64,000 bases of DNA from the NCBI RefSeq assembly GCF_013358405.1, contig NZ_CP054836.1, forward strand, positions 620,001 to 684,000. Direction: 5' to 3'. A program made the translations under genes and the position numbers. A model generated the notes under the pieces. The model did no database searches. It saw only the letters and a program-made list of their open reading frames with translations, and was not told the DNA's origin. How positions within the stretch are numbered: position 1 is the first letter of the stretch; every line of letters begins with the position of its first letter. This document shows, piece by piece, positions 20,011 through 34,665 of the stretch. Origin of the DNA: Oricola thermophila. Lineage in GTDB: Bacteria; Pseudomonadota; Alphaproteobacteria; Rhizobiales; Rhizobiaceae.

Positions 20011-20035
20011 AAAAAAGCGGGGACCAGTCCCCGCT
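20011..20035 (-). terminator. Terminator of the cold-shock gene
   Basis: On the minus strand AGCGGGGAC pairs with GTCCCCGCT (20016-20035) and is followed by six Ts (20011-20016). It lies 61 bases after the csp stop. Confidence 0.8.
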
Positions 20036-20095
20036 TCGTGTGTCGATGGGAACCGGGCAGGGGACGCTTGGCGGTCCGCCCGGTTTCACTGCCGG

Positions 20096-20302
20096 TTAGA
20101 GCAGCTGGAGGTTCGCCGCGCTCGTACGGCCGTCACGGCCGGACTCGAGGTCGAAAGAGACCTTCTGGCCTTCGACGAGACCGCCGATGCCTGCGCGCTC
20201 GAGGGCGCTGATGTGGACGAACACGTCCTTGCTGCCGTCTTCCGGCTGGATGAATCCAAAGCCCTTCTGGCCATTAAAGAACTTTACGGTACCTGTAGTC
20301 AT
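20096..20302 (-). CDS. cspA: Cold-shock domain protein
   Basis: A 68-residue single cold-shock domain. RNP1 (KGFGFI) and RNP2 (VFVHIS) are intact, and the length matches alphaproteobacterial CspA. It binds single-stranded RNA and DNA and melts secondary structure. The start [10 protein letters not shown] at 20302 is clear; the in-frame extension upstream is the leader. The leader region up to about 20440 may carry thermosensor structure, but I could not identify one. A strong terminator follows. Confidence 0.93.
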
Positions 20303-20554
20303 GTCTGCTATTCCTAAGCGTAACTTGCCGCGCCGCAACGTGCGGACGCGATCCAAACATCGAAATTTTGGAAAGAAATTGGCGGGTCGATAGCGTTGAC
20401 GCCGCGAATAGCCAAGACTGGCCAAAAGAACGATGATTTTACATAGTACGGATTTGCGGTTTATTCAAGGCCGTCATCCGAAGTCTTGCGAAAATGTGCA
20501 CTGGCTGACGGCGAAACGCCCGATATCGGCGTTCCCGGCCGATCCGGCACAAAC

Positions 20555-20710
20555 AAAAAAAGCGGGCTATTGCCCGCTTTCCCCGTTCAACCGTGACCTG
20601 CCAGGTGCCAGTACATCCGTGGTCACGTGGCGGTCTTCCGGTTGTCGCAGCCAGCGCCGGGGACCTCTCGACACATCCGGAAGGAGCCCCACGCGGCGCC
20701 GTGCCGCTCA
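20555..20710 (-). ncRNA. Candidate heat-shock small RNA, divergent copy
   Basis: The minus strand carries a divergent relative of the two repeats at 32222-32376 and 34505-34665. Shared blocks in order: CCCATCTATTG, GCGCCGCGTG, GCTCCTTCC-GAT, a GTAC-GGC-CC block and the terminator. The terminator stem AAAGCGGGC/GCCCGCTTT with loop AATA and a T7GTTT tail is the same as copy 1. No coding frame is conserved between copies. The gene sits between the stop of the propionate regulator and csp. It has its own sigma-32-like promoter and is about 155 nt long. Antisense frames here are not protein genes. Confidence 0.65.
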
Positions 20711-20715
20711 ACAAT

Positions 20716-20744
20716 AGATGGGCGGCGCGGGGCGCGGTTTCAAG
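20716..20744 (-). promoter_or_regulatory. Sigma-32-like promoter of the divergent small RNA copy
   Basis: On the minus strand CTTGAA (20739-20744) is followed after exactly 15 bases by GCCCATCTA (20716-20724). The classical heat-shock consensus is CTTGAA, a 13-17 base spacer, then CCCCATNTA. It begins 30 bases after the stop of the upstream regulator gene. Confidence 0.6.
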
Positions 20745-20774
20745 GCCTGAACCGAGACATGGTCGGAAATCCGA

Positions 20775-22193
20775 CTACTCGAAGCTGTAGGGCACCGTAT
20801 CGCGCGCCTTTTCGTCCACGAACAGCTTGTGCTTGAGCGGCGGCACGGCGCGCTGGTGGCAGTCCTGGCGCTCGCAGATGCGGCACGAAATGCCGATTGG
20901 CTCGAAGGCCTCGTCGCGGCCGGTGTCGAGATCGTCGGCATAGACCAGCTCGCCGGCATGGCGCACCTCGCAGCCAAGCGCCAGCGCATAGCGCTGCACG
21001 GGGGCACGGAAGCCGCCTCCCGGTTTCGAGACGGTCGTCGCGAGGCACAAATACCGAATCCCGTCAGGGGTTTCGGCCAGTTGCCTGATAATCCGGTTCG
21101 GCGTCTCGAAGGCGGAGTGCACGTTCCAGAGCGGGCAGGCGGAACCGAAGCGGGCGAATTGCAGCTTGGTGGCCGAGTGGCGCTTGGTGATGTTGCCGGC
21201 CTGGTCCACGCGGGCGAAGAAGAAGGGCACGCCCTTCAGCCCCGGTCGCTGCAGGGTCGACAGCCGGTGGGCGACCTGCTCGATCGAGGCACCGAAGCGC
21301 TCGGCAAGCAGCTCGAGGTCGTGACGCAGCTCCCGGGCGGCTTCCATGAATTCGCCATAGGGCAGCAATGCCGCGCCGGCGAAATAGTTGGCCAGGCCGA
21401 TCCGGCAGATGGCCTCGGCATCCCTCGAGCGGAAGGCGGCCTTGCGCACGATCTCGTCGATGGCATCCGAATGGGCGATCAGGGCCAGCTGGTGGGCGAT
21501 CTGGAAGGCCCGGGTGGCGGGCGAGGAGCGCGGATTGAGCGACAGTACCTTCGAATGACGGTCGTAGCGCCTGATTGCGCCGGGCCGTGCCGCCGCTCCG
21601 CCGATCACCGTGCGCACGCCGTGGCGGGACTCGATGAACCCGGCCAGCGCGCGCGTTCGGTCGGTGCGACCGGCATCCAGCTGGCCGGCGAGATCCTCGG
21701 CCGCGCGGTCCAGCCAGTCGATGTAGTTGTCCATGTAGTGAAAGAAGTCGCGGACTTCCTCGTAGGGTGTCGGCTCGGCCTGTGCCCCGGAGCGCTCCAG
21801 CGTGTCGTCCAGTTCCGCCAGCCTCTCGCCGGCGCGGCGCAGCGCCTGGTGCATGGAGAGGAAGGCATGGGCCACGGCGGGCGTGTTCTGGACGACCAGC
21901 TTCAGGTCCTGCGCCGGCGGCGCGTCGCCGGAAAACAGAGGGTCGGCGAGGGCTTCCGACAGGTCCGCCAGCAGCCGGTCGTCGTCATTGCCCGACAGGT
22001 CCTTGATGTCGACGGCGAAAACCTCGGCCAGCGCCATGAGGACCGGGGCGGTCACGTGGCGCTGATTGTTCTCGATCTGGTTGAGATAGGAGGTCGAGAT
22101 GCCGAGCTGGGCCGCGAAAGCCGCCTGGGTCAGGCCGCGTTCCGTGCGGATGGAGCGGATCTTGCGTCCGGCGAATACCTTGCGTGCGCGCAT
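20775..22193 (-). CDS. pccR: Short-chain acyl-CoA regulator (PccR/ScfR/RamB family)
   Basis: A 472-residue regulator: an Xre-type helix-turn-helix (residues about 7-62), an ImmA/IrrE-like middle region (about 160-300, QIAHQLALIAHS) and a C-terminal DUF2083-type domain with cysteines CRICERQDC. Relatives such as RamB and PccR sense acyl-CoA or acetate/propionate status and control carboxylase or glyoxylate genes. It is divergent from pccB, so control of propionyl-CoA carboxylase is inferred. The ATG at 22193 begins right before the helix-turn-helix; a GTG at 22229 would overlap the operator-like repeats. Confidence 0.82.
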   Translation of the reverse strand: MRARKVFAGRKIRSIRTERGLTQAAFAAQLGISTSYLNQIENNQRHVTAPVLMALAEVFAVDIKDLSGNDDDRLLADLSEALADPLFSGDAPPAQDLKLVVQNTPAVAHAFLSMHQALRRAGERLAELDDTLERSGAQAEPTPYEEVRDFFHYMDNYIDWLDRAAEDLAGQLDAGRTDRTRALAGFIESRHGVRTVIGGAAARPGAIRRYDRHSKVLSLNPRSSPATRAFQIAHQLALIAHSDAIDEIVRKAAFRSRDAEAICRIGLANYFAGAALLPYGEFMEAARELRHDLELLAERFGASIEQVAHRLSTLQRPGLKGVPFFFARVDQAGNITKRHSATKLQFARFGSACPLWNVHSAFETPNRIIRQLAETPDGIRYLCLATTVSKPGGGFRAPVQRYALALGCEVRHAGELVYADDLDTGRDEAFEPIGISCRICERQDCHQRAVPPLKHKLFVDEKARDTVPYSFE

Positions 22194-22197
22194 GTTT

Positions 22198-22212
22198 GCA
22201 ATTTCGCAATTT
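22198..22212. promoter_or_regulatory. GCAATTT direct repeats, candidate PccR operator
   Basis: GCAATTT occurs twice with an 8-base period (22198-22204, 22206-22212) in the pccR-pccB divergent region. The 10-mer TTCGCAATTT within it recurs at 23873-23882 before yghU. Known RamB/PccR sites contain TTTGCAAA, which is similar. Confidence 0.5.
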
Positions 22213-22313
22213 GCTATTTGATTTTTCACTAAATCCGCTTGCTTGCTTTTTCAACCCTAGCTGCGCAGGCTCGCAGGCGTTACGGAAAACGCCCCGGCAA
22301 ACGCGAGGACTTC

Positions 22314-23846
22314 ATGCAGGATATTCTGGAACAGCTGGAAGAGCGCCGGCGCGAAGCGCGCCTCGGCGGCGGTCAGAGGCGTATCGACGCACAGCACGCC
22401 AAGGGCAAGCTGACCGCGCGCGAGCGGCTGGAGGTGCTGCTCGACGAGGGCTCCTTCGAGGAATACGACACCTACAAGGCGCATCGCTGCGCCGATTTCG
22501 GCATGGATCAGACGAAGATCCCCGGCGACGGCGTGGTCACGGGCTGGGGCACCATCAACGGCCGGCCGGTCTATGTCTTCTCCCAGGATTTCACCGTTTT
22601 TGGCGGTTCGCTGTCGGAAACGCACGCCGAGAAGATCTGCAAGGTTATGGACCTTGCCATGCAGAACGGCGTGCCGATCATCGGCCTCAACGATTCCGGC
22701 GGCGCGCGCATCCAGGAGGGGGTGGCCTCGCTGGGTGGCTATGCCGAGGTGTTCTGGCGCAACGCGCAGGCCTCCGGCGTCATCCCGCAGATTTCCGTCA
22801 TCATGGGCCCGTGCGCGGGCGGCGCGGTCTATTCGCCGGCCATGACCGACTTCATCTTCATGGTGAAGGACACCAGCTACATGTTCGTCACCGGCCCGGA
22901 CGTGGTGAAGACCGTCACCAACGAGATCGTCACGGCGGAGGAACTCGGCGGCGCATCGACCCATTCGAAGAAATCCTCCGTCGCTGACGGCGCCTACGAG
23001 AACGATGTCGAGGCGCTGCTCGAAATCCGCCGCATGTTCGACTTCCTGCCGCTGTCGAACCGCGAGGCGCCGCCGGTCATACCGACCGCCGACCCGGGTG
23101 ACCGCGTCGAGATGGCGCTGGACACGCTGGTGCCGGAAAATCCGAACAAGCCCTATGACATGCACGAGGTCGTCACCAAGGTGGCGGACGAGGGCACCTT
23201 CTTCGAGATCCAGAAGGATCACGCCGGCAACATTCTCTGCGGCTTCATCCGTCTCAACGGCTCGACCGTGGGCGTGGTGGCCAACCAGCCCATGGTGCTG
23301 GCCGGTTGCCTCGATATCGATGCTTCGAAGAAGGCCGGGCGCTTCGTGCGTTTCTGCGATGCCTTCAACATCCCGATCCTGACCTTCGTTGACGTGCCGG
23401 GCTTCCTGCCGGGTACCGCGCAGGAATATGGCGGCATCATCAAGCACGGCGCGAAGCTCCTGTTCGCCTATGCGCAGGCGACCGTGCCCAAGGTCACGGT
23501 GATCACCCGCAAGGCCTATGGCGGTGCCTATGACGTGATGGCGTCGAAGCACATTCGCGCGGACGTCAACTACGCTTGGCCGACTGCGCAGATCGCGGTG
23601 ATGGGGGCCAAGGGCGCGGCCGAGATCCTCTACCGCTCGGAGCTGGGCGATGCCGACAAGATCGCGCAGCGCACCAAGGAGTACGAGGACCGCTTCGCCA
23701 ATCCCTTCATCGCCGCCGAGCGCGGCTTCATCGACGAGGTGATCATGCCGCACTCGACGCGTCGCCGCGTGGCGCGGGCCTTCGAGCTGCTGAAGGGCAA
23801 GCAGGCGGAGGCCCCGGCCAAGAAGCACGACAACATTCCGTTGTGA
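22314..23846 (+). CDS. pccB: Propionyl-CoA carboxylase beta subunit
   Basis: A 510-residue carboxyltransferase that moves CO2 from biotin on PccA to propionyl-CoA, giving (S)-methylmalonyl-CoA. The N-terminal acyl-CoA-binding crotonase-like half ([29 protein letters not shown]) and the C-terminal biotin-binding half ([22 protein letters not shown]) are intact. Length is normal. The ATG at 22314 follows GCGAGGAC; the frame is open further upstream without a good start. It begins the pcc block, but pccA is two genes further down. Confidence 0.95.
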
Positions 23847-23872
23847 GGGTGGCGGCTGCCGTGGAAGGACAA

Positions 23873-23882
23873 TTCGCAATTT
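23873..23882. promoter_or_regulatory. Second TTCGCAATTT site before yghU
   Basis: Exact 10-base match to the candidate PccR site at 22203-22212, located in the 118-base gap between pccB and yghU. It suggests an internal PccR-controlled promoter. Short, so chance is possible. Confidence 0.4.
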
Positions 23883-23964
23883 CTCGTGATGAGGGGCGCC
23901 GCAGTCGGTGCGTTCTTCCTATATGGTGCAGCGCCAATGCAAACCTCAGGAAGGACATGAATTC

Positions 23965-24876
23965 ATGACCGATCAATTCGATCCCGCAAACAACTTCCCC
24001 GCCGGCTACGTTCCGCCGAAGGTCTGGGAATGGGAGCAGGGCAATGGAGGCACCTTCGCCTCGATCAACCGGCCGACCGCCGGTGCGCAGTTCGAGAAGG
24101 AGCTGCCTGTCGGTCGGCATCCGCTGCAGCTCTATTCGCAGGGCACGCCCAACGGGGTGAAGATCACGGTCATGCTGGAGGAGCTTCTGGCTGCCGGCCA
24201 CGAGGGAGCCGAATACGACGCCTGGCTCATCCGGATCGGGGAGGGCGACCAGTTCGGCTCCGGCTTCGTTTCCGTCAACCCGAATTCCAAGATCCCGGCC
24301 ATGATGGACCATGCGCCGAAGGGTGGCGGCGAGCCGATACGGCTGTTCGAGTCCGGCTCCATCCTGCTCTATCTCGCCGAGAAGTTCGGCGCCTTCCTGC
24401 CGACCGACATTCGCGGGCGTACCGAGGCGCTGAACTGGCTGTTCTGGCAAATGGGCTCCGCTCCCTATCTCGGCGGCGGCTTCGGCCATTTCTACGCCTA
24501 TGCCCCGATGAAGATAAAATACGCCATCGACCGCTTCGCCATGGAGGTGAAGCGCCAGCTCGACGTGCTCGACCGGCACCTGGCCGACCACGAGTACATG
24601 GCCGGCAGCGAGTACACGATTGCCGACATGGCGATCTGGCCCTGGTACGGGCGGCTCGCCAGCCACGGCGCCTACAACGACGCCGGCGAGTTCCTCTCCG
24701 TCGACGAATACGAGAACGTCCAGCGCTGGACGAAGCAGATCGCGCAGCGTCCGGCGGCGCAGCGCGGCTCGATGGTCAACCGCACCTTCGGCGATCCGGC
24801 GAAGCAGCTGCACGAACGTCACGACGCCTCCGACTTCGAGACGAAGACGCAGGACAAGATCGGGGACGCGGGCTGA
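23965..24876 (+). CDS. yghU: Glutathione S-transferase family protein YghU
   Basis: A 303-residue Nu-class glutathione transferase with disulfide reductase activity in the E. coli relative. Blocks INRPTAG, LPVGRHPLQLYS, GTPNGVKITVMLEELL, YDAWLIRIGEGDQF, FESGSILLYLAEKFG and the C-terminal HERHDASDFET match YghU closely. The N-terminal thioredoxin-like and C-terminal all-helical domains are complete. The ATG at 23965 has AGGAAGGA nine bases upstream. Its stop overlaps the start of the next gene (TGATG), tying it to the pccA transcript. A metabolic link to propionate is not known to me. Confidence 0.93.
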   Translation: MTDQFDPANNFPAGYVPPKVWEWEQGNGGTFASINRPTAGAQFEKELPVGRHPLQLYSQGTPNGVKITVMLEELLAAGHEGAEYDAWLIRIGEGDQFGSGFVSVNPNSKIPAMMDHAPKGGGEPIRLFESGSILLYLAEKFGAFLPTDIRGRTEALNWLFWQMGSAPYLGGGFGHFYAYAPMKIKYAIDRFAMEVKRQLDVLDRHLADHEYMAGSEYTIADMAIWPWYGRLASHGAYNDAGEFLSVDEYENVQRWTKQIAQRPAAQRGSMVNRTFGDPAKQLHERHDASDFETKTQDKIGDAG

Positions 24877-25253
24877 TGGTGAAACTGCCGCACATGACCA
24901 AGCATCGCGGCTTCCCGTCCGGCCTGCCGGGCACGGGGTACCAGTTCACGATCCGCCGCGCCAACCCGAAGGGAGTGACGCCGATCGTGCGCCGAGAGCG
25001 CAAGCGGGATCGCCTGCCGGTCGAGATACTTGCCGACACCGCCTTCCTGCACGCGTTGTGGCACCATTTCGGCAACGAGCCCTTCGAGCGGGGCAATCTC
25101 GACGCGGGCCGGCTGTCCTGGCTGTTCGGGCGGGAGGTCGTGCCCGCCGAGCAGCCCTTCGACCCGGCCTCCTACGAGGCGCTGCTGAAGATCGATGAAG
25201 AGGTCGCCCGGGCGAGTTTCCCGGACGCATTCGAGGATGTGCTAGAAGTATGA
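24876..25253 (+). CDS. Unknown 125-residue protein in the pcc operon
   Basis: I do not recognise this protein. It begins with a basic stretch (TKHRGFPSG, IRRANPKGVTPIVRRERKRDR) and ends with an acidic helix-like region ([21 protein letters not shown]). No signal peptide, membrane helix or cysteine motif is visible. The start overlaps the yghU stop (TGATG); a second ATG at 24894 is possible. The stop overlaps the pccA start (ATGA). Tight coupling on both sides suggests a role with biotin carboxylase or the transferase, but no function can be assigned. Confidence 0.7.
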   Translation: MVKLPHMTKHRGFPSGLPGTGYQFTIRRANPKGVTPIVRRERKRDRLPVEILADTAFLHALWHHFGNEPFERGNLDAGRLSWLFGREVVPAEQPFDPASYEALLKIDEEVARASFPDAFEDVLEV

Positions 25254-27351
25254 CAACAGAGCTTTTCTCCAAGATCCTCGTCGCCAATCGCGGCGAAATC
25301 GCCTGCCGCGTCTTCAGGACCGCGAAACGTCTCGGCATCGGAACCGTCGCGGTGCACTCGGAGGCCGACCGCAACGCGCTCCATGTCGAGATGGCCGACG
25401 AGGCCGTGGAGATCGGCCCTGCACCTGCCTCCGAGAGTTACCTCGTCATTGACAGGATCATCGAGGCCTGCAAGGAGACCGGCGCCGACGCCGTGCATCC
25501 CGGTTACGGCTTCCTGTCCGAGCGGGCCGAGTTCGCCGAGCGGCTGAAGGCCGAGGGCATCGCCTTCATCGGCCCGCCGGTCAATGCCATCGAGGCGATG
25601 GGCGACAAGATCACGTCCAAGAAGCTTGCCGCCGAGGCCGGGGTCTCCACCGTCCCCGGCTTCATGGGGCTGATCGACGATGCCGATCATGCGGCGAAGA
25701 TCGCGTCCGAGATCGGTTATCCGGTGATGATCAAGGCGTCGGCGGGCGGCGGCGGCAAGGGCATGCGGATCGCCTGGAACGACGACGAGGCACGAGAGGG
25801 CTTCGCGCGCTCGAAGTCCGAGGCCGCGTCCTCCTTCGGCGACGATCGCATCTTCATCGAGAAATTCATCACCGAGCCGCGCCACATCGAGATCCAGGTG
25901 CTGGCCGACTCCCACGGCAATGCCGTCTGGCTCGGCGAGCGGGAATGCTCGATCCAGCGGCGCAACCAGAAGGTCATCGAGGAGGCGCCGTCGCCCTTCC
26001 TCGACGATCAGACGCGCCGGAAGATGGGCGAGCAGGCCGTCGCGCTGGCGAAGGCCGTCGGCTACTCGTCGGCCGGCACGGTCGAGTTCATCGTCGACCG
26101 GGACCGCAACTTCTACTTCCTGGAGATGAACACCCGCCTGCAGGTGGAGCATCCCGTCACCGAGCTGATCACCGGCGTCGATCTCGTCGAACAGATGATC
26201 CGGGTTGCCGCCGGCGAGCGGCTGACGCTGGCCCAGGACGACATCCGGCTGGACGGCTGGGCGATCGAGAGCCGGCTCTATGCCGAGGACCCGTACCGCA
26301 ACTTCCTGCCCTCCATCGGACGGCTGACGCGCTACCGCCCGCCGCGCGAGGGAAAACGCTTCGACGGCGTGATCGTGCGCAACGATACCGGCGTCTTCGA
26401 GGGCGGCGAGATATCGATGTTCTACGATCCGATGATCGCCAAGCTTTGCACCTGGGCGCCGACGCGCGACGAGGCGGTCGAGGCCATGGCGGAGTCGCTC
26501 GACGCCTTCGAGGTCGAGGGCATCGGCCACAACCTGCCGTTCCTGTCGGCGGTGATGGACCATCCGCGCTTTCGCGAGGGACGTATCACCACGGCCTTCA
26601 TCGCCGAGGAATATCCGGACGGCTTTGCAGGCGCGGAGCTTTCCGCCGAGAACCTGCGCCTGGTGGCGGCCACGGCCGCGGCGGCGCAGTGGATATCGGA
26701 GCGCCGCGGCAGCTTCATCACCGGCCGCATGGGAAGCGGCCATCGCGCCGAGCCGCGGGAAACGCCCTACGTGGTGCGTGCGGGCGGCGAGGAGTTCGAG
26801 ATCGCCATCGACGCGGAAGCCACGCGCGGCTTCTACGACGCCGAAAGCCTTGTCGCGCCGTCCGGCGGCGAGTGGGGCGGCCCGATATGGCTCACCTTCG
26901 CCGACGAGGACGAGGCGCGCGGCTACCAGGTCGCCTGGCGGCCCGGAGACCGGGTGGCGATCCTGTTCGCCGAGACCGGCGAGAAGGGGCGCTGGCGCGA
27001 GATCGCGGCGATGAAGATCGCGCCGATCCCCGGCGGCTTCCGGATGCGCTACCGCGGCGCCGATCTCGCCGTCCATGTCATGGCCCCGCACGTGGCGCGG
27101 CTTGCCGCCATGATGCCGGAAAAGGAGGCGCCCGACACCTCCAACCTGCTGCTGTGCCCGATGCCGGGCCTCGTCGTCGCGCTGCATGTCGAGGAAGGCG
27201 AGAAGGTGGTCGAAGGCCAGCCGCTCGCCATCATCGAGGCGATGAAGATGGAGAACGTGCTGCGTGCCGAGAAGGCCGGCACGGTGGCGAAAATCCCCGT
27301 CTCGGTCGGCGAAAGCCTCGCCGTCGATGCGGTCATCATGGAGTTCGAGAG

Positions 27352-27355
<4 letters not shown>
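25250..27355 (+). CDS. pccA: Propionyl-CoA carboxylase alpha subunit (biotin-containing)
   Basis: A 701-residue biotin-dependent enzyme. The biotin carboxylase part (residues 1-450) shows [14 protein letters not shown], the ATP-grasp loop [26 protein letters not shown] and [13 protein letters not shown]-type BT linker domain follows (about 510-620), then a biotinyl domain with the biotinylated lysine in EAMKMEN. It carboxylates biotin with ATP and bicarbonate and works with PccB. It overlaps the upstream 125-residue gene and the downstream mutase by ATGA, so expression is coupled to both. Confidence 0.95.
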
Positions 27356-29487
<2,132 letters not shown>

Positions 29488-29513
29488 AGTTCAGTAAAGG
29501 GCAGAATTTCTAC

Positions 29514-30083
29514 CTAGATTACTTTCTTGGATTTCGGTGTATCCGGCAGGTGGATAGTCTTAATATAGCGCCCATATGATTTGTTGATGGCGAACGGTTC
29601 AGGCCGGAGGAAAAGCTGTATGTGTTCTCCTTTCTTTTGGCCAGGGTAGGGCGTTCCGGCTTTTACGAAACCCGAACGTTCCAGAATGCGGTGCATTCCG
29701 ATATTGTCTGTCCGGGTTGTTGAAAATATTCCCCGGTTTTCGGCGCATTCGATGGACGCCCTTATCAACTCACTCGCGTAGCCGTTATTGCGCACGACCT
29801 CTGCGACAAACACATAGCCGAGTTCGTAAGGGTAATCCGCATCCCCAACATACACGCCGGTTCTCTTGGGGAATTTTGAGCGATAGCTGGCTTGAGGTAT
29901 TTTAAGTGCGGCAGCCCCGAGCGCTGTGCCTCTAACACGAAGGAAAATAAGACGTTTGGCATTCGGCACATTGGTCCGAAGCGTCTTTTCGCTAACCTCG
30001 CCGCCAACCAATATAAGATCAATGAAATCCTTTTGAAGAACGGAAGAAAAATCGTCCGGGTTTCCTGTAATAATCTCAATCAC
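29514..30083 (-). CDS. GNAT-family acetyltransferase coupled to the retron
   Basis: A 189-residue protein with an N-acetyltransferase fold. The acetyl-CoA loop RNNGYASELIRAS and the following FSTTRTDNIGMHRILERSGF (motif B region) are clear. It starts with GTG at 30083, and that base is also the last base of the reverse transcriptase stop (TAGTG), so translation is coupled. Composition is AT-rich like the retron and unlike the pcc operon. It may be a second effector or antidote, acting on tRNA, protein or nucleotide, but no substrate can be read from the sequence. It is convergent with the mutase gene 26 bases away. Confidence 0.8.
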   Translation of the reverse strand: MIEIITGNPDDFSSVLQKDFIDLILVGGEVSEKTLRTNVPNAKRLIFLRVRGTALGAAALKIPQASYRSKFPKRTGVYVGDADYPYELGYVFVAEVVRNNGYASELIRASIECAENRGIFSTTRTDNIGMHRILERSGFVKAGTPYPGQKKGEHIQLFLRPEPFAINKSYGRYIKTIHLPDTPKSKKVI

Positions 30084-31801
30084 TACGGCACCCTTGATTT
30101 GTAGTCGACGATTGCCGCAGTAATTCGCTCCAACAACGGCTTGAAGCCGTTAAAATCGATTTTGTCTGCATTGGGCCGGACCACTTGCTCGGCGAATACG
30201 AACTTTCCGTAGCCACCGGAAGCGCCACCATATTTTAACGAATTGAACTTCTTTCCTTTGACTTTGGTTTCCAAAAGGGAAGGCTCGAAACAATCCTCGA
30301 TGCAGGATTTCCCTGACTCTCCTTTCTCGATAGTTTTAACGAGGTAAAGATTATCGGTGATGTGGTAGAATTTATCATCTGATTGCAAATCAATTGTTAT
30401 TCCGAAATTCTGCTTGATAGTTTTGAAAAGCCCCTTAGCACCGTCGTCGTTGTCGATCAGCACGATGACCGGGTGTTGCAGCGGTTTGTGGCCGAATCTA
30501 TTTATGATTTCGTGGTAGCGCGTCTTGATAAAGAAGAACTTCAAATCCTCGGTGCCGCCACCCAACTCCAGCACTGAGTGCACACGGCCAGTGTAGTTGA
30601 AGAAAGATATTTTCGAAGTGAATTTTTCGTCCTTTATTTTGGCCAATTCCGGAAATGACGGCGTGAGTTTCCGCAGCGCACACTTCAAGTAGATACTGTC
30701 AGTCTTGCCTTCACAAATTACGAGCGGTTGATCTAGGCAGACGAATTTCTTGAATATCAAAAACCGCCTATAGAGCTGGCGCGCCGCTGTCCCGTGTCTT
30801 CTTTTCTCCGGTTCGATGCGTACATCGATGGTGTCTTTGACGTGATGGATATGGCTCAGAATTCCCTCTAATGGATTCAGGGATTCGATCATTTCAGGCT
30901 CTTTTTCACCAACGACCGACACTTTAGATGGCCGATAATATTTTCCCGACTTGAAAGCCTGGTGGCACATTGAGCGAGCGTAACGGTAGTACTCCGGACG
31001 GATATTGACTTTGTCGTTGACAGTAAGTCCTGTAACGAGTTGGCGGCCATCCCGAAATTGCATGCGGGTCTTGTCGGGATTGATCTTAAAGCCGGCGCCT
31101 TCAATCGCCTTTGTCAACGGATCTGCGAGTTTCCAATCCGGTCCCTCGCCAGCTACAGGTTGTGCCAAAGCCGCCGGAAATTTCTTCAAGCTTGTAGAAA
31201 AGGTGATGTCGTCGGCATAGCGCGAGTAGGTGACTTTGTGGTCTTTCGCAAGCCGTACGAGCCGCGCGTCAAGAATGTTTGCGATCAGATCAGCAATGAT
31301 GGGCGAACACGGGCTTCCTTGCGGAAGTGAGTTCTCGTGGCAGGCAATCTGGCTGATAAGCGTTGCAACGTTTTCGTGAAAACCAAAGCGGTTGTCACTA
31401 ATGAAAAAACCACGCACTCGCCCGAAATTGAAGGTAGGAAAGAAATCCTTCAGGTCGAGGTTTAGGACGTAGCGACGACGTTTATGCTTCCGCGCATTCG
31501 AGATAATGGAATGCCCGCGACGAAAGCCGTGGGAGGTAGAGTTTATTCCTTTTTCTGCCTCAATTGAATCAACAGAGGCATAGAGCACATTGGCGAGCCG
31601 TCGCTGGAGCGTTTTCAGCGGTTCGATGGGTGCGCAGATTTCTCTCTCGCCTCCGTGGGATTTTTTGATCTTGAATTTCTTGTACTTTGAATTTTCTTCC
31701 AGCTTGTATATTATGTAAGAAATTCCCTTTGGCGAGAAGCCAAGTATTTTTGCGAGGTCTTCTAAATCTTTAGCGTCTTGTAGTTTCTTTAGTATGGTCA
31801 T
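30083..31801 (-). CDS. Retron reverse transcriptase fused to TOPRIM domain (Ec67-like)
   Basis: A 572-residue fusion. The reverse transcriptase part (residues about 45-300) has the catalytic YADD at 195-198, LPQGSPCSP at 159-167, NPDKTR at 241-246 and the retron hallmark VTG at 257-259. The C-terminal part (about 357-510) is a TOPRIM domain: ICEGKTD with E364, and VIVLIDNDDG with D450 and D452. Ec67-type retrons share this fusion and act in phage defence, with the TOPRIM part as toxic nuclease; that role is inferred here. The ATG at 31801 has no clear ribosome site. A candidate msr-msd RNA ends 25 bases upstream. Hand counts of single 60-base stretches gave 42% GC here and 68% in the neighbouring mutase gene, a sign of transfer. 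Confidence 0.92.
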   Translation of the reverse strand: MTILKKLQDAKDLEDLAKILGFSPKGISYIIYKLEENSKYKKFKIKKSHGGEREICAPIEPLKTLQRRLANVLYASVDSIEAEKGINSTSHGFRRGHSIISNARKHKRRRYVLNLDLKDFFPTFNFGRVRGFFISDNRFGFHENVATLISQIACHENSLPQGSPCSPIIADLIANILDARLVRLAKDHKVTYSRYADDITFSTSLKKFPAALAQPVAGEGPDWKLADPLTKAIEGAGFKINPDKTRMQFRDGRQLVTGLTVNDKVNIRPEYYRYARSMCHQAFKSGKYYRPSKVSVVGEKEPEMIESLNPLEGILSHIHHVKDTIDVRIEPEKRRHGTAARQLYRRFLIFKKFVCLDQPLVICEGKTDSIYLKCALRKLTPSFPELAKIKDEKFTSKISFFNYTGRVHSVLELGGGTEDLKFFFIKTRYHEIINRFGHKPLQHPVIVLIDNDDGAKGLFKTIKQNFGITIDLQSDDKFYHITDNLYLVKTIEKGESGKSCIEDCFEPSLLETKVKGKKFNSLKYGGASGGYGKFVFAEQVVRPNADKIDFNGFKPLLERITAAIVDYKSRVP

Positions 31802-31825
31802 TTAGCAATTTCGTAATAAGGAAAT

Positions 31826-31964
31826 GCTTACAGGCACTCCTATGCGATACCCAGTTTTCGTCCATTCATCACAAACGAATAGGCATTAAGGATCGTCGGG
31901 AAGCGATTCCCTCCTGACATTGTTTCTTATATCGCGATACGCGATAACAATTCTGCCTGTAAGC
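31826..31964 (-). ncRNA. Retron msr-msd RNA, Ec67-like
   Basis: A perfect 11-base inverted repeat, GCTTACAGGCA (31954-31964 as read on the minus strand) with TGCCTGTAAGC (31826-31836), forms the a1/a2 stem of a 139-nt RNA just upstream of the reverse transcriptase. After a1 the RNA reads GAATTGTT, then a TATCGCG/CGCGATA hairpin (31930-31946), then CAGGAGGGAATCGCTTCCC with a GGGAA/TTCCC stem (31898-31911), then GATCCTTAAT. From memory, Ec67 RNA has the same order: GGCAGA-TTGTT, CAGGAGG-AATCGCCTCCC, ATCCTTGAT and GGAGTGCCTG before a2. The copied msd part would fold on CCTAT/ATAGG (31839-31883). The branching G is probably the one right after GGCA. Confidence 0.85.
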
Positions 31965-31983
31965 GGTTTTCTAATAACCGCTT
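31961..31983. promoter_or_regulatory. Inverted repeat at the retron RNA start
   Basis: AAGCGGTT (31961-31968) and AACCGCTT (31976-31983) form a perfect 8-base inverted repeat that overlaps the first four bases of a1. On the minus strand TATTAG lies inside it, seven bases before a1, a plausible -10 box. It could be an operator or a structure that competes with a1/a2 pairing. Confidence 0.5.
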
Positions 31984-32168
31984 CAATCAAATGGCACAAG
32001 TTTGTCAATCATCGGCGAACATGGAAAGCTATCTGGCGCACGGTGATAGTTTGTACCGGTCGCAACCAATATACTGATGTTGCACTTCGAGGCTTCTTAT
32101 CCCCGTTTTTGCGGGCTAGCCTTAATCCAACTCTCCTTATTAAACTTTACCCGCCCTCCCTATCTCCT

Positions 32169-32187
32169 CCCCCCCCCCCCCCCCCCC
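32169..32187. repeat. Homopolymer of 19 cytosines
   Basis: An uninterrupted run of 19 C ends exactly at the -35 box of small RNA copy 1. Copy 2 has an interrupted C-rich stretch at the same place. The exact length may be a sequencing estimate. Long C-runs slip in replication and could vary between cells. Confidence 0.9.
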
Positions 32188-32216
32188 TTGAACTCCGTCC
32201 CCACCGTCCCCATCTA
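32187..32216 (+). promoter_or_regulatory. Sigma-32-like promoter of small RNA copy 1
   Basis: CTTGAA (32187-32192), a 15-base spacer and CCCCATCTA (32208-32216) match the RpoH consensus almost perfectly. Transcription would start near 32222-32224. The spacer length equals that in the divergent copy near 20.7 kb. Confidence 0.7.
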
Positions 32217-32221
32217 TTGAT

Positions 32222-32376
32222 CAACCGGCTGACGCCGCGTGAAGCTCCTTCCAGATAGGTTGCGAGGTTTCGGGCGAGGTCGGGTCAGAGCTGATCGACA
32301 GTCTGGCGACCGCGGAAGTACCGGCGCCATCCAAGTCTCAGCGAACGAGGGAAGCGGGCAATAGCCCGCTTTTTTT
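32222..32376 (+). ncRNA. Candidate heat-shock small RNA, copy 1
   Basis: From the expected start to the terminator this is about 155 nt. It ends with AAGCGGGC/GCCCGCTT (loop AATA) and seven Ts, a strong intrinsic terminator. It contains AGCTCCTTCC, which can pair with Shine-Dalgarno sequences; CAACC (32222-32226) can pair with GGTTG (32258-32262) to enclose it. About six differences separate it from copy 2 over roughly 170 bases. I cannot place it in a named family with certainty; alphaproteobacterial small RNAs with anti-Shine-Dalgarno motifs are known. Confidence 0.7.
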
Positions 32377-32408
32377 GTTTCCGGCGCCGAGCCGGTCAAG
32401 CCCGGTGA

Positions 32409-33278
32409 TCACGTCAGGGCGGCGAACTGCTTGCGGATGTCGGCGACAAAGACGCGCATGCGCGCCGTATGCCGGAAGTCGCGGTGGTAGAGAATCCAGA
32501 CATCCCGGTCCGATTTCACCGTCAGTTCGGGAAGCTGGACGAGATCCGGTATCCAGGCGCCCACGATGACCGGGAGTTCGACCACGCCCATATTCGCCAG
32601 CGCCGCGGCAACCGCGGCAAGCTTGGTATCGACCCGGCAGGCCGCGCGCCCGCCGGGAAAATGCGATGCCGCCCATTCGGGCCGACCCTCGCCCGTGTCG
32701 TGCCAGATCCAGTCGAGGTCGGTGCGCCGGGTTGCTTCCTCCGCATCGGTTCCCTTCGCTTGCAGGTAGGCCCGCGTGCAGTAGAGGCTGTTCCGGTTCG
32801 CGGTCAGCCGATGCCCGACCAGCGTCTCTTGTGGCGCGGCGGTCGCACGGATGGCGACGTCGGCCTCGCGCCTGTTCAGGCTCGCGAGCTCGTCCGAGGC
32901 CAGCAAGGTGACCTCTATCTGCGGGTAGCGCGACGAGAAACCGGCGATCATTGGCATGAGCAGGTAGTGCGCGAGAAGGGGCGGCGCCGCTATCGTGAGC
33001 TTGCCGCCGATGCGGGCATCCCTGGCGCTTGCGCCGCGCGAGAAGCGCGACACCTGGTTCTCGACCTGCTCCGCGATCGGAACGAGTTCGCTTCCCGCGG
33101 CCGTCAATGCAAGCCCGCTCGCCAGCCGGTCGAACAGCCTGACGCCCATCCGCCGCTCGAGCTGCGCTATGCGGCGCGATACGGTCGAATGGTTGACTGC
33201 CAGCCGACGGGCGGCCGCGGTTATGCTGCCCGTTCGGGCAACGGCCAGGAAATGGCGGATGTCGTCCCAGTCGTGCAT
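32409..33278 (-). CDS. LysR-family transcriptional regulator
   Basis: A 289-residue LysR protein: a winged helix-turn-helix at residues 3-60 (FLAVARTGSITAAARRLAVNHSTVSRRIAQLE) and a periplasmic-binding-like effector domain. The ATG at 33278 is preferred over a GTG at 33293, which would sit inside the candidate operator. It is divergent from the metallo-hydrolase gene, the usual arrangement for a LysR protein and its target. The inducer is unknown. Confidence 0.87.
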   Translation of the reverse strand: MHDWDDIRHFLAVARTGSITAAARRLAVNHSTVSRRIAQLERRMGVRLFDRLASGLALTAAGSELVPIAEQVENQVSRFSRGASARDARIGGKLTIAAPPLLAHYLLMPMIAGFSSRYPQIEVTLLASDELASLNRREADVAIRATAAPQETLVGHRLTANRNSLYCTRAYLQAKGTDAEEATRRTDLDWIWHDTGEGRPEWAASHFPGGRAACRVDTKLAAVAAALANMGVVELPVIVGAWIPDLVQLPELTVKSDRDVWILYHRDFRHTARMRVFVADIRKQFAALT

Positions 33279-33291
33279 TGTGCAAAAATGC
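33271..33291. promoter_or_regulatory. Inverted repeat at the LysR start, candidate autoregulatory operator
   Basis: GTGCATT and AATGCAC form a perfect 7-base inverted repeat around GTGCAAA (33271-33291), overlapping the LysR start codon. TTTTGCA-like half-sites continue toward the hydrolase gene. The position suits a LysR autoregulatory site. Confidence 0.5.
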
Positions 33292-33393
33292 ACGAGAAGT
33301 CTGCAAAAGTCGAGAATTTTCGAACCGGTCCGACCCTGCTAGCAACCGGGACCTGCCCGTAGGCGCAGCGCACAGCAAAACAGGAGCCAACCC

Positions 33394-34353
33394 ATGCACA
33401 TCGATAGACGCAGCTTTCTCACCGGTGCAGGCAAGTTCGCCTTTGCAACCGCCCTGGTTTCGCCGGGCGCTGCCCTGCAATTAGCTTCCCATCCAGTCCG
33501 GGCGAGCCAATCCACCGGCGCGCACAGCTGGAGCGTCGGCGATATCAGGATCACCGCCCTGCTCGACGGCTTCGTCGAACTCGACGCGACGATATTTGCC
33601 GACGCGGACCCGTCCGAGCGGCGAACGCTTCTGGAGGAAGCCGGCCAGAAGCCAGGCAAGTTCGCAGTCGACGTGAACGCGTTTCTGCTGGAACACTCGG
33701 GCAAGCTCACGCTCATCGACAGCGGCACCCGCGATCTCTTTGGCCCGACGCTCGGCAAGGTGCCTGCGGCGCTGAGGAACATCGGCGTGGATCCCGCCAA
33801 CATAGGCCATGTGCTGCTTACCCACATGCATAACGATCATGTCGGCGGTCTGCTGGACGAGAATGGCGCGGCCGCGTTCCCCAATGCCGAGCTTGTCGTT
33901 CCGGCTGCCGAGTGGGACTACTGGACGTCCGAGGACGTCTACTCCGCCGCATCGGATCAGGGACGGTATTCCTTCGCCGGAGCACGGGCCGCGGCGCCGG
34001 TCTACAAGGACCGGGTGAAGACCTTCGCGGGTGAGGCCGAGATACTGCCGGGCGTCTTTCCGATCGCGTTGCCCGGCCACAGTATCGGGCACACCGGTTT
34101 CCGCCTCGCATCGGGCTCCGAGCAGATGATCGTCTGGGGCGACATTGTCGTTTCTCCGCAGGTGCAGTTCGCGCATCCGGAATGGGCGTCGACCTTCGAT
34201 GCGGACGGCCAGCTTTCGATCGCCTCGCGCATACGGATGTTCGACGAGGCTGCGGCCGACAGAATCCTCGTCGCGGGAATGCATCTTCCATTCCCGGGGG
34301 GCGGACGTGTCGAAGTGCACGGTCTCTCCTACCGGTTCTTGCCATTCGAATAG
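33394..34353 (+). CDS. Secreted MBL-fold metallo-hydrolase
   Basis: A 319-residue protein with a twin-arginine type signal (DRRSFLTGAGKFAFATALV) and cleavage near residue 37. The metal motif HMHNDH (in LLTHMHNDHVGG) and later histidines in PGHSIGHTGF and MHLPFPGGG fit a two-zinc metallo-beta-lactamase fold. Such proteins include lactonases, arylsulfatase-like and quinoprotein-relay enzymes; the substrate is unknown. GGAGCC precedes the ATG. It is divergent from the LysR gene, which probably controls it, and is followed by small RNA copy 2. Confidence 0.82.
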   Translation: MHIDRRSFLTGAGKFAFATALVSPGAALQLASHPVRASQSTGAHSWSVGDIRITALLDGFVELDATIFADADPSERRTLLEEAGQKPGKFAVDVNAFLLEHSGKLTLIDSGTRDLFGPTLGKVPAALRNIGVDPANIGHVLLTHMHNDHVGGLLDENGAAAFPNAELVVPAAEWDYWTSEDVYSAASDQGRYSFAGARAAAPVYKDRVKTFAGEAEILPGVFPIALPGHSIGHTGFRLASGSEQMIVWGDIVVSPQVQFAHPEWASTFDADGQLSIASRIRMFDEAAADRILVAGMHLPFPGGGRVEVHGLSYRFLPFE

Positions 34354-34484
34354 CGGACTTCCTGTTAATGTCGGTCGGTGACCGACCGGTGTTTCCCTGT
34401 CCGCTAAAAATGCAGGGGCTTTCCCGAAGCGACTGGACGGAAGGGCAGGGGCGGAGCAGGTGGAAGAGTGCACCGCCCCCGCCC

Positions 34485-34665
34485 CTTGAACTCCGTCCCC
34501 ACCTATTGATCAACCGGCTGACGCCGCGTGAAGCTCCTTCCAGATAGGTTGCGAGTTTTCGGGCGAGGTCGGGTCAGAGCTGTTCGACAGTCTGGCGACC
34601 GCGGAAGTACCGGCGCCATTCGAGTCTCGGCGAACGAGGGAAGCGGGCAGTAGCCCGCTTTTTTT
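34485..34665 (+). ncRNA. Candidate heat-shock small RNA, copy 2 with shortened promoter
   Basis: This direct repeat of copy 1 is nearly identical from TTGATCAACCGG to GTTTCCGGCGC, including the terminator AAGCGGGC/GCCCGCTT (34641-34660) and T-run. CTTGAA is at 34485-34490, but only six bases separate it from CCCCACCTA because nine bases present in copy 1 are missing. The promoter is therefore probably weak, changed or dead. The RNA body would begin near 34505. No protein frame is conserved. Confidence 0.6.

What the first reader, a model, noticed from the sequence alone, without database searches (positions are those of the whole stretch)
20555..34665. Three-copy family of putative heat-shock small RNAs
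Copies at 20555-20710 (minus), 32222-32376 (plus) and 34505-34665 (plus) share CCCATCTATTG or a remnant, GCCGCGTG, CTCCTTCC-GAT and an almost identical terminator, with no conserved protein frame. The two long-promoter copies have CTTGAA, exactly 15 bases, then (C/G)CCCATCTA, which is the sigma-32 consensus. CTCCTTCC can mask ribosome sites. I cannot match the family to a named RNA.
Basis: partly seen in the sequence, partly recalled or inferred. Interest (0 to 1): 0.85.

Follow-up and report, generated by a model that had tools for sequence, protein, structure and literature searches.

The report
Divergent αr35 small RNA, three copies
The three repeats are a diverged branch of a small RNA family already known from rhizobia (αr35/SmelB053): two copies carry heat-shock-type promoters, one has lost its promoter, and all share a hairpin that elsewhere sits at the end of cold-shock mRNAs.

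Summary
Copies lie at 20555-20709 (-), 32222-32376 (+) and ~34511-34665 (+); no fourth was found in the 4.0 Mb genome. The genus is Oricola. The "unnamed" family has a name. All three copies match Rfam RF02346 (ar35 = SmrB35/SmelB053 of Sinorhizobium), below its cut-off (43.7, 25.5, 28.0 bits against 45). A model built without Oricola finds them at 54-55 bits; the next window match has 17.7. They share the family's three-stem-loop plan and conserved second hairpin, which in relatives lies within 130 nt behind cold-shock (csp) genes at 57 of 107 sites, a link already published (PMC3927594). The promoters of copies 1 and 2 are two of three strict CTTGAA-N14-16-CCCATNT matches in the genome; copy 3 lost 9 nt of its spacer. 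Elsewhere in Oricola one copy is sigma-32-like, one nearer housekeeping, one ambiguous. CTCCTTCC is invariant in six Oricola copies, absent from an outgroup homologue, and mostly paired in three of six predicted folds, so ribosome-site masking is unproven. New here: copy 1 and two orthologues precede a csp gene, while no csp gene in this genome carries the hairpin core.

The parts
20716..20744 (-). Copy 1 promoter, CTTGAA-N16-CCCATCT (sigma-32 type)
   Evidence: one of three strict matches in the genome
20555..20709 (-). Copy 1 sRNA (start inferred about 7 nt after the -10; end = end of the T run)
   Evidence: RF02346 43.7 bits; leave-out model R2 54.3 bits
20679..20686 (-). CTCCTTCC of copy 1, in stem-loop 1
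   Evidence: structure
20607..20624 (-). Hairpin core GACCACGGATGTACTGGC of copy 1 (stem-loop 2, GAUGUA hexaloop)
20555..20580 (-). Intrinsic terminator of copy 1 (stem-loop 3)
20441..20469 (-). Predicted housekeeping-type promoter of the csp gene (CTTGAA-N17-CTATGT), between copy 1 and csp; similar sequence at the same place in G003, G004, G065
   Evidence: alignment
20096..20302 (-). Cold-shock protein gene (CSD, 68 aa) directly downstream of copy 1
   Evidence: PF00313 82.8 bits
32187..32215 (+). Copy 2 promoter, CTTGAA-N16-CCCATCT (sigma-32 type)
32222..32376 (+). Copy 2 sRNA (ends inferred)
   Evidence: R2 54.3 bits
32245..32252 (+). CTCCTTCC of copy 2
32308..32325 (+). Hairpin core of copy 2, GACCGCGGAAGTACCGGC (A-U to G-C compensatory change in the stem; loop GAAGUA)
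32352..32376 (+). Terminator of copy 2
34485..34508 (+). Remnant promoter of copy 3: CTTGAA and CTATTG with 9 nt missing between them
34511..34665 (+). Copy 3, RNA part intact, promoter broken
   Evidence: R2 55.2 bits
34534..34541 (+). CTCCTTCC of copy 3
34597..34614 (+). Hairpin core of copy 3
34641..34665 (+). Terminator of copy 3

Best explanation
The loci are three copies of a divergent alpha-r35/SmelB053-type trans-encoded sRNA of about 155 nt with three stem-loops: a lineage-specific 5' domain holding CTCCTTCC, a strongly conserved hairpin with a GAUGUA (here also GAAGUA) hexaloop, and an intrinsic terminator. Copies 1 and 2 are separate genes with sigma-32-type promoters. Copy 3 is a local duplicate of copy 2 that lost its promoter and, if transcribed at all, is made by read-through from the metallo-hydrolase gene upstream. 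Most likely working (inferred): under heat or similar stress RpoH makes copies 1 and 2, and stem-loop 2, the element that relatives carry at the 3' end of cold-shock mRNAs, binds the factor (an RNA-binding protein or RNase) that reads that mRNA end. The sRNA would thus act as a decoy or competitor that shifts the stability of RNAs bound by the same factor. Step by step: identity 0.93; transcription of copies 1 and 2 with RpoH input 0.75; decoy action through stem-loop 2 0.35; base pairing by the CU-rich 5' domain 0.25.
For: Identity: RF02346 hits and the leave-out model from 34 non-Oricola sites, 54-55 bits. Structure: covariation in six Oricola copies and in 41 sites. Promoter: two of three strict genome matches, full score of 11 of 11 in copies 1, 2 and G005; -35 and spacing shared with one groES and one hsp20 gene; one RpoH gene over the family cut-off and a second RpoH-like one below it. 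Across relatives stand-alone sites show sigma-32-like promoters more often than csp-3'UTR sites (13 of 44 against 2 of 57 at p<=0.05 against dinucleotide shuffles; Fisher p 3e-4). Shared element: 57 of 107 sites lie within 130 nt behind csp genes, as published for 29 of 33 3'UTRs with the interceptor proposal. Separate unit: csp has its own promoter-like sequence, kept in four genomes.
Against: No expression data for this organism. In this genome none of the 4 csp genes carries the hairpin core; the one behind copy 1 gives only a weak model match (17.1 bits, E 0.0045, window 20011-20105; G004 18.8, G003 13.7 bits), so the decoy would have to act on other RNAs or on the factor itself. The copies are below the Rfam cut-off. 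Promoter types overlap: 5 of the 20 stand-alone sites with a sigma-32 or sigma-70 signal score for both, G003 and G004 among them, and PMC3616915 itself warns that RpoH and RpoD motifs are similar and that many predicted RpoH promoters are likely false (passages). No copy was found in G002 of the same genus (best 28.6 bits). S. meliloti SmrB35 was first reported with a sigma-70 promoter and luteolin response.
Confidence: 0.6

Rival explanations
1. Antisense-to-Shine-Dalgarno sRNA: CTCCTTCC pairs with AAGGAG-type ribosome sites and represses many mRNAs under stress, as RpoH1-dependent AbcR2 does with its aSD motifs in S. meliloti.
For: CTCCTTCC is invariant in the six Oricola copies while flanks vary. 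It is partly open in the predicted ensembles of copy 1, G003 and G004. Precedent: AbcR2, an RpoH1-dependent sRNA with aSD motifs (PMC8844928, passages).
Against: CUCC and the last CC are almost fully paired in copies 2, 3 and G005, with only UU free; the consensus fold pairs CCUU with GAGG. The homologue in G078 has TCCTGCG at that place although the rest aligns. The exact 5' pattern turned up in no alphaproteobacterial genus but Oricola in the scan of 84,980 genomes.
Confidence: 0.25
2. Copy 1 is a 5' leader or attenuator of the csp gene behind it: sigma-32 transcripts usually stop at the terminator and sometimes run on into csp.
For: The hairpin core starts 287-331 nt before the csp domain on the same strand in G000, G003, G004 and G065.
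Against: Strong terminator with T7, then a csp promoter-like sequence in all four. Copies 2, 3 and that of G005 have no csp gene within the 700 nt upstream and 800 nt downstream read.
Confidence: 0.08
3. A dispersed terminator-bearing repeat without function of its own.
For: Copy 3 is a broken local duplicate; free-standing copies vary from 0 (G001, G002) to 3 in the genus.
Against: Compensatory base changes; the core in 50 of 101 genomes, 107 sites against 1 for the reversed pattern; promoter enrichment; RNAs of the family detected in S. meliloti.
Confidence: 0.05
4. The copies encode a 41-codon peptide (GTG to TAG).
For: The frame is open and of equal length in all three window copies.
Against: It stops 6 codons after CTC in G005 and G003 and has neither that start nor that stop in G004; of the 6 differences between copies 2 and 3 in the stretch compared, 3 fall on second and 3 on third codon positions.
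Confidence: 0.02

Closest known systems
alpha-r35 / SmrB35 / SmelB053 (Rfam RF02346), Sinorhizobium meliloti
   Same: Three stem-loops, first one variable, second with GGAUGUA loop, third a terminator (PMC3927594 passages); 139 nt (PMC2780559 passages); listed with RpoD and RpoH1/2 and a figure 3 that I take for copy number (PMC7143759 table passage); a second copy 3 kb away, 64% identical (PMC2573895 passages).
   Different: Below the Rfam cut-off; own 5' domain with CTCCTTCC, its exact pattern in no other alphaproteobacterial genus; GAAGUA loop in copies 2 and 3; strict sigma-32 promoters in copies 1 and 2.
3'UTR hairpins of csp mRNAs in Rhizobiales (SmelC521 type)
   Same: Same GACCACGGATGTACTGGC hairpin and terminator; published for 29 of 33 3'UTRs.
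   Different: The window copies are free-standing, two with own promoters; no csp gene of this genome bears the core.
AbcR2 of S. meliloti
   Same: RpoH1-dependent sRNA with anti-SD motifs; RpoH1 consensus CTTGAA-N16-CCTATAT (PMC8844928 passages).
   Different: No Rfam match to it in the stretch; the CU-rich stretch here lies largely in a stem.
SmelA075 family with CCUCCUCCC loops
   Same: CU-rich element and several copies (PMC3927594 passages).
   Different: There three hairpins each show CCUCCUCCC in the loop; here one CTCCTTCC sits mainly in a stem.

Membership tests
alpha-r35 (RF02346) | Rfam gathering score of 45 bits | tested here: not met
   43.7, 25.5, 28.0 bits for copies 1, 2, 3; RF02346 itself reaches 48.2 on a csp 3'UTR of G001
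alpha-r35 / SmelB053 family in the sense of PMC3927594 | Stem-loop 2 with conserved GGAUGUA loop | tested here: met
   Exact in copy 1; one letter off (GGAAGUA) in copies 2, 3 and G005; covarying stem
alpha-r35 / SmelB053 family in the sense of PMC3927594 | Profile similarity to family members outside the genus | tested here: met
   Leave-out model R2: 54.3, 54.3, 55.2 bits, E about 1e-13; next in window 17.7 bits. Its 34 sites had been picked by a motif that allowed the window's variants, and include csp 3'UTRs
alpha-r35 / SmelB053 family in the sense of PMC3927594 | Three stem-loops, variable first, terminator third | tested here: met
alpha-r35 / SmelB053 family in the sense of PMC3927594 | Detected as an independent transcript | not testable with these tools
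   No RNA data for Oricola at hand
sigma-32 (RpoH) regulon | CTTGAA-N16-CCTATAT-like promoter | tested here: met
   Copies 1 and 2 (CTTGAA-N16-CCCATCT); copy 3 not met
sigma-32 (RpoH) regulon | RpoH-dependent induction | not testable with these tools
   needs an rpoH deletion strain
Anti-SD sRNA | Exposed CU-rich stretch | tested here: inconclusive
   mostly paired in three of six predicted ensembles, partly open in three
Hfq-bound sRNA | Hfq co-precipitation | not tested
   SmrB35 of S. meliloti gave no signal, absence or weak binding (PMC2848018 passages)

The most novel reading that the evidence does not exclude
The GGA(U/A)GUA hairpin is a portable binding site for an unidentified RNA-binding factor. 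In relatives it marks the 3' ends of cold-shock mRNAs; in the window's Oricola it has left csp and survives only in sRNA genes with heat-shock promoters, one of them next to csp, so that the heat-shock sigma factor controls the factor that once read cold-shock mRNAs.
Probability: 0.22. Interest if true: 0.6.

Novelty: new variant of a known kind. Interest (0 to 1): 0.38.

Why it matters
It turns an 'unnamed' RNA into a branch of a known but functionally unexplained family. It also gives a clean test case for the published interceptor idea: a genome that keeps the sRNA yet has no cold-shock gene followed by the hairpin core. If the sRNA still binds the same factor there, simple protection of csp mRNAs cannot be its only role. 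It further shows that the Rfam ar35 model does not separate sRNA genes from csp 3'UTRs: 10 of the 19 matches over its cut-off are sites that class as csp 3'UTRs.

Tried and rejected
Protein-coding repeat: rejected. Rfam at the curated threshold gave nothing; the family came out only in E-value mode. The hairpin as a peptide start (GGATGTACTGG) was rejected because ATG is changed in copies 2 and 3 and in a few other sites. A CsrA-type loop (ANGGA; motif recalled) was rejected because copies 2 and 3 break it. Other names for the RNA: searches for ar35, Smr35B and alphar35 gave no relevant paper; SmelB053/smrB35 gave 11 listed papers, and I saw passages of six of these. A paper on the alphaproteobacterial sRNA families whose DOI I recalled is not held. 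Searches for later work on csp 3'UTR RNAs in alphaproteobacteria found only PMC3927594 and PMC2873474, or nothing; they cover open-licence papers only. Alignment A1 had wrong coordinates for G005 and was replaced by A2. The sigma-32 test first used single-base shuffles and was repeated with dinucleotide shuffles without the window copies.
Full report
What is there. Three related stretches lie on both strands of the window. Copy 1 against copies 2 and 3 gives E 4e-17 and 6e-12; the next match in the 4.0 Mb genome has E 0.12. Copies 2 and 3 are a local duplication, 96% over 184 nt. A covariance model built from 41 sites gives 62.8-68.7 bits for the three and 26.6 for the next listed place in the genome. 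That model contained the copies. A second one without any Oricola row gives 54.3, 54.3 and 55.2 bits against 17.7 for the next place in the window.

Organism. A scan of genome contigs (84,980 species) with the 5' pattern GCTCCTTCCNGATNNGTNGNGAG found 7 places: Oricola indica JL-62, Oricola sp. HH_bin22, a MAG labelled Ahrensia sp. SAT55, and four from unrelated phyla that I take for chance. The contig lengths of the first three equal those of G005, G004 and G003, which the search tool places in the window's own genus. So the genus is Oricola, and the exact 5' pattern was seen in no other alphaproteobacterial genus. The species is not established.

Anatomy. Six Oricola copies (three in the window, one each in G003, G004, G005) fold into three stem-loops. 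93% of cells pair, and 15 of 55 pairs have compensatory changes, against a shuffled mean of 6.9 with 0 of 500 shuffles as high; sliding the partners breaks it. The structure came from the same rows, which favours it. CTCCTTCC is invariant in the six. In the consensus its CCUU pairs with GAGG; in the single ensembles of copies 2, 3 and G005 CUCC and the final CC are paired with probability near 1 while UU is free, and it is partly open in copy 1, G003 and G004. The second hairpin has a conserved core. Among 41 sites its lower stem covaries strongly (for example G-C 16, C-G 9, U-G 5, A-U 4, not paired 7 at one pair). The G-C-closed hexaloop is GAUGUA, but GAAGUA in copies 2, 3 and G005, GAGGUA in L033 and GACGUA in L148. 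The loop was unpaired with probability 0.9 or more, apart from its first G, in five of six copies; in G004 the predicted fold disrupts it.

Coding. The three window copies share an open 41-codon frame, GTG to TAG. It is broken after 6 codons in G005 and G003 and different in G004, so I do not read the repeat as a gene for a protein.

Which family. Rfam at its curated thresholds finds nothing. In E-value mode copy 1 reaches 43.7 bits for RF02346 ar35 (cut-off 45, E 1.5e-5), copies 2 and 3 25.5 and 28.0, copy 1 aligned over the block UGACCACGGAUGUACUGGCAC. The cut-off as a formal test is therefore not met; the structural features and the leave-out model are. PMC3927594 (passages and one section) describes the SmelB053 family so: first stem-loop variable and sometimes missing, second with GGAUGUA, third a terminator, and the last two also in 3'UTRs, 29 of 33 of them of cold-shock genes; the authors suggest interceptor transcripts. 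PMC7143759 (table passage) lists SmelB053/smrB35 with RpoD and RpoH1/2. PMC2780559 (passages) gives SmrB35 139 nt and a predicted sigma-70 promoter. So the family, its csp link and an RpoH promoter in it are already in print.

The hairpin in relatives. The pattern GACCRCGGANGTACYGGC occurs in 50 of 101 genomes, 107 places, against 1 for the reversed pattern. Of the 107, 57 lie within 130 nt behind a csp stop codon, 4 lie ahead of a csp gene, 3 lie 312-343 nt behind one, and 43 have none on that strand within about 700 nt upstream and 800 nt downstream, where that much was held. In the window's genome the only three places are the copies; none of the 5 cold-shock domains (4 genes) has the core behind it. 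The csp 3'UTR behind copy 1 does give a weak match to the leave-out model (17.1 bits, E 0.0045), as do those of G004 (18.8) and G003 (13.7); this may be a worn-out remnant or only the terminator.

Promoters. Strict CTTGAA-N14-16-CCCATNT occurs 3 times in the genome (reversed control 0): copies 1, 2 and one place 300 nt ahead of an ArsR-like gene (the gene name is my reading of the sequence). CTTGAA-N17-CCANNT occurs 11 times (control 6), among them ahead of one groES and an Hsp20 gene, which serve as internal standards; a control of 6 means that this looser pattern alone proves little. The second groES gene has a housekeeping-like promoter. One RpoH gene is over its family cut-off and a second RpoH-like one is below it. 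S. meliloti RpoH1 consensus: CTTGAA-N16-CCTATAT (PMC8844928 passage). Scored against simple consensus words, copies 1, 2 and G005 have 11 of 11 for sigma-32; G003 has 9 of 11 for sigma-32 and 10 of 12 for sigma-70; G004 has 10 of 11 (with an 18-base spacer) and 9 of 12; copy 3 has 8 of 11 at best. Across relatives 13 of 44 stand-alone sites have a sigma-32-like promoter at p<=0.05 against 2 of 57 csp sites, and 12 of 44 against 1 of 57 a sigma-70-like one; 5 sites score for both. So stand-alone copies do have promoters of both types, and sigma-32 control is one state, not the family rule.

Context. Copy 1 is followed by a csp gene about 250 nt behind its terminator. The same order holds in G003, G004 and, with another 5' domain, in G065. 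A promoter-like sequence for csp lies in between in all four, so I take copy 1 for a separate unit. Copy 2 faces a LysR gene, and the copy of G005 faces a gene that reads like LysR (by eye). Copy 3 lies about 130-160 nt behind a metallo-hydrolase gene on the same strand and could end its transcript.

Mechanism. I rate the decoy reading, in which stem-loop 2 binds the factor that reads csp mRNA ends, highest (0.35), because that hairpin is the one part kept across genera and contexts. The anti-SD reading has the invariance within Oricola for it, but the G078 homologue, which aligns along the whole RNA, lacks the motif. Neither is shown. The result against the simplest decoy idea is that this genome has no csp gene followed by the core.

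Verdict. A real and well-read observation; a divergent branch of a family already described, with a new lineage-specific 5' domain, a csp neighbour and one dead promoter.

Noticed in passing
window 32169-32187: A run of 19 C whose last base is the first base of the -35 box of copy 2; a tract of this kind could slip and change promoter strength.
   Followed up: no
window 30083-31801 (-): Reverse transcriptase that matches the RT-Toprim_I-C defence class (PADLOC PDLC02966, E 2.6e-216) on the far side of copy 2; the G005 locus has a different gene there.
   Followed up: partly
L150 2226-2344; L141 1071-1185 and 545-669: Rfam RF02346 scores 48.2 bits on a csp 3'UTR of G001. In a G065 locus with the order hairpin-csp-hairpin it gives 54.1 bits for the hairpin ahead of csp and 44.9 for the one behind it. 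The model does not separate sRNA genes from csp 3' ends.
   Followed up: partly
L074, L075, L104, L125 and L079, L088, L101, L106, L123: Two further stand-alone groups with the hairpin core but other flanks and mostly CTTG-type promoters with CATNT or TATAT; they do not look like alpha-r35 and may be other RNAs using the same hairpin.
   Followed up: no
L152 2531-3172; L079 downstream (G062): A protein stretch with VVQYKIKSEYERF follows csp in G004 and one with SLQYRIRNDDERY follows a stand-alone hairpin site in G062; a frame with a similar start (MDTHRFSVGDLVCYRSR, my reading) lies behind csp in the window. Possibly a linked gene family.
   Followed up: no
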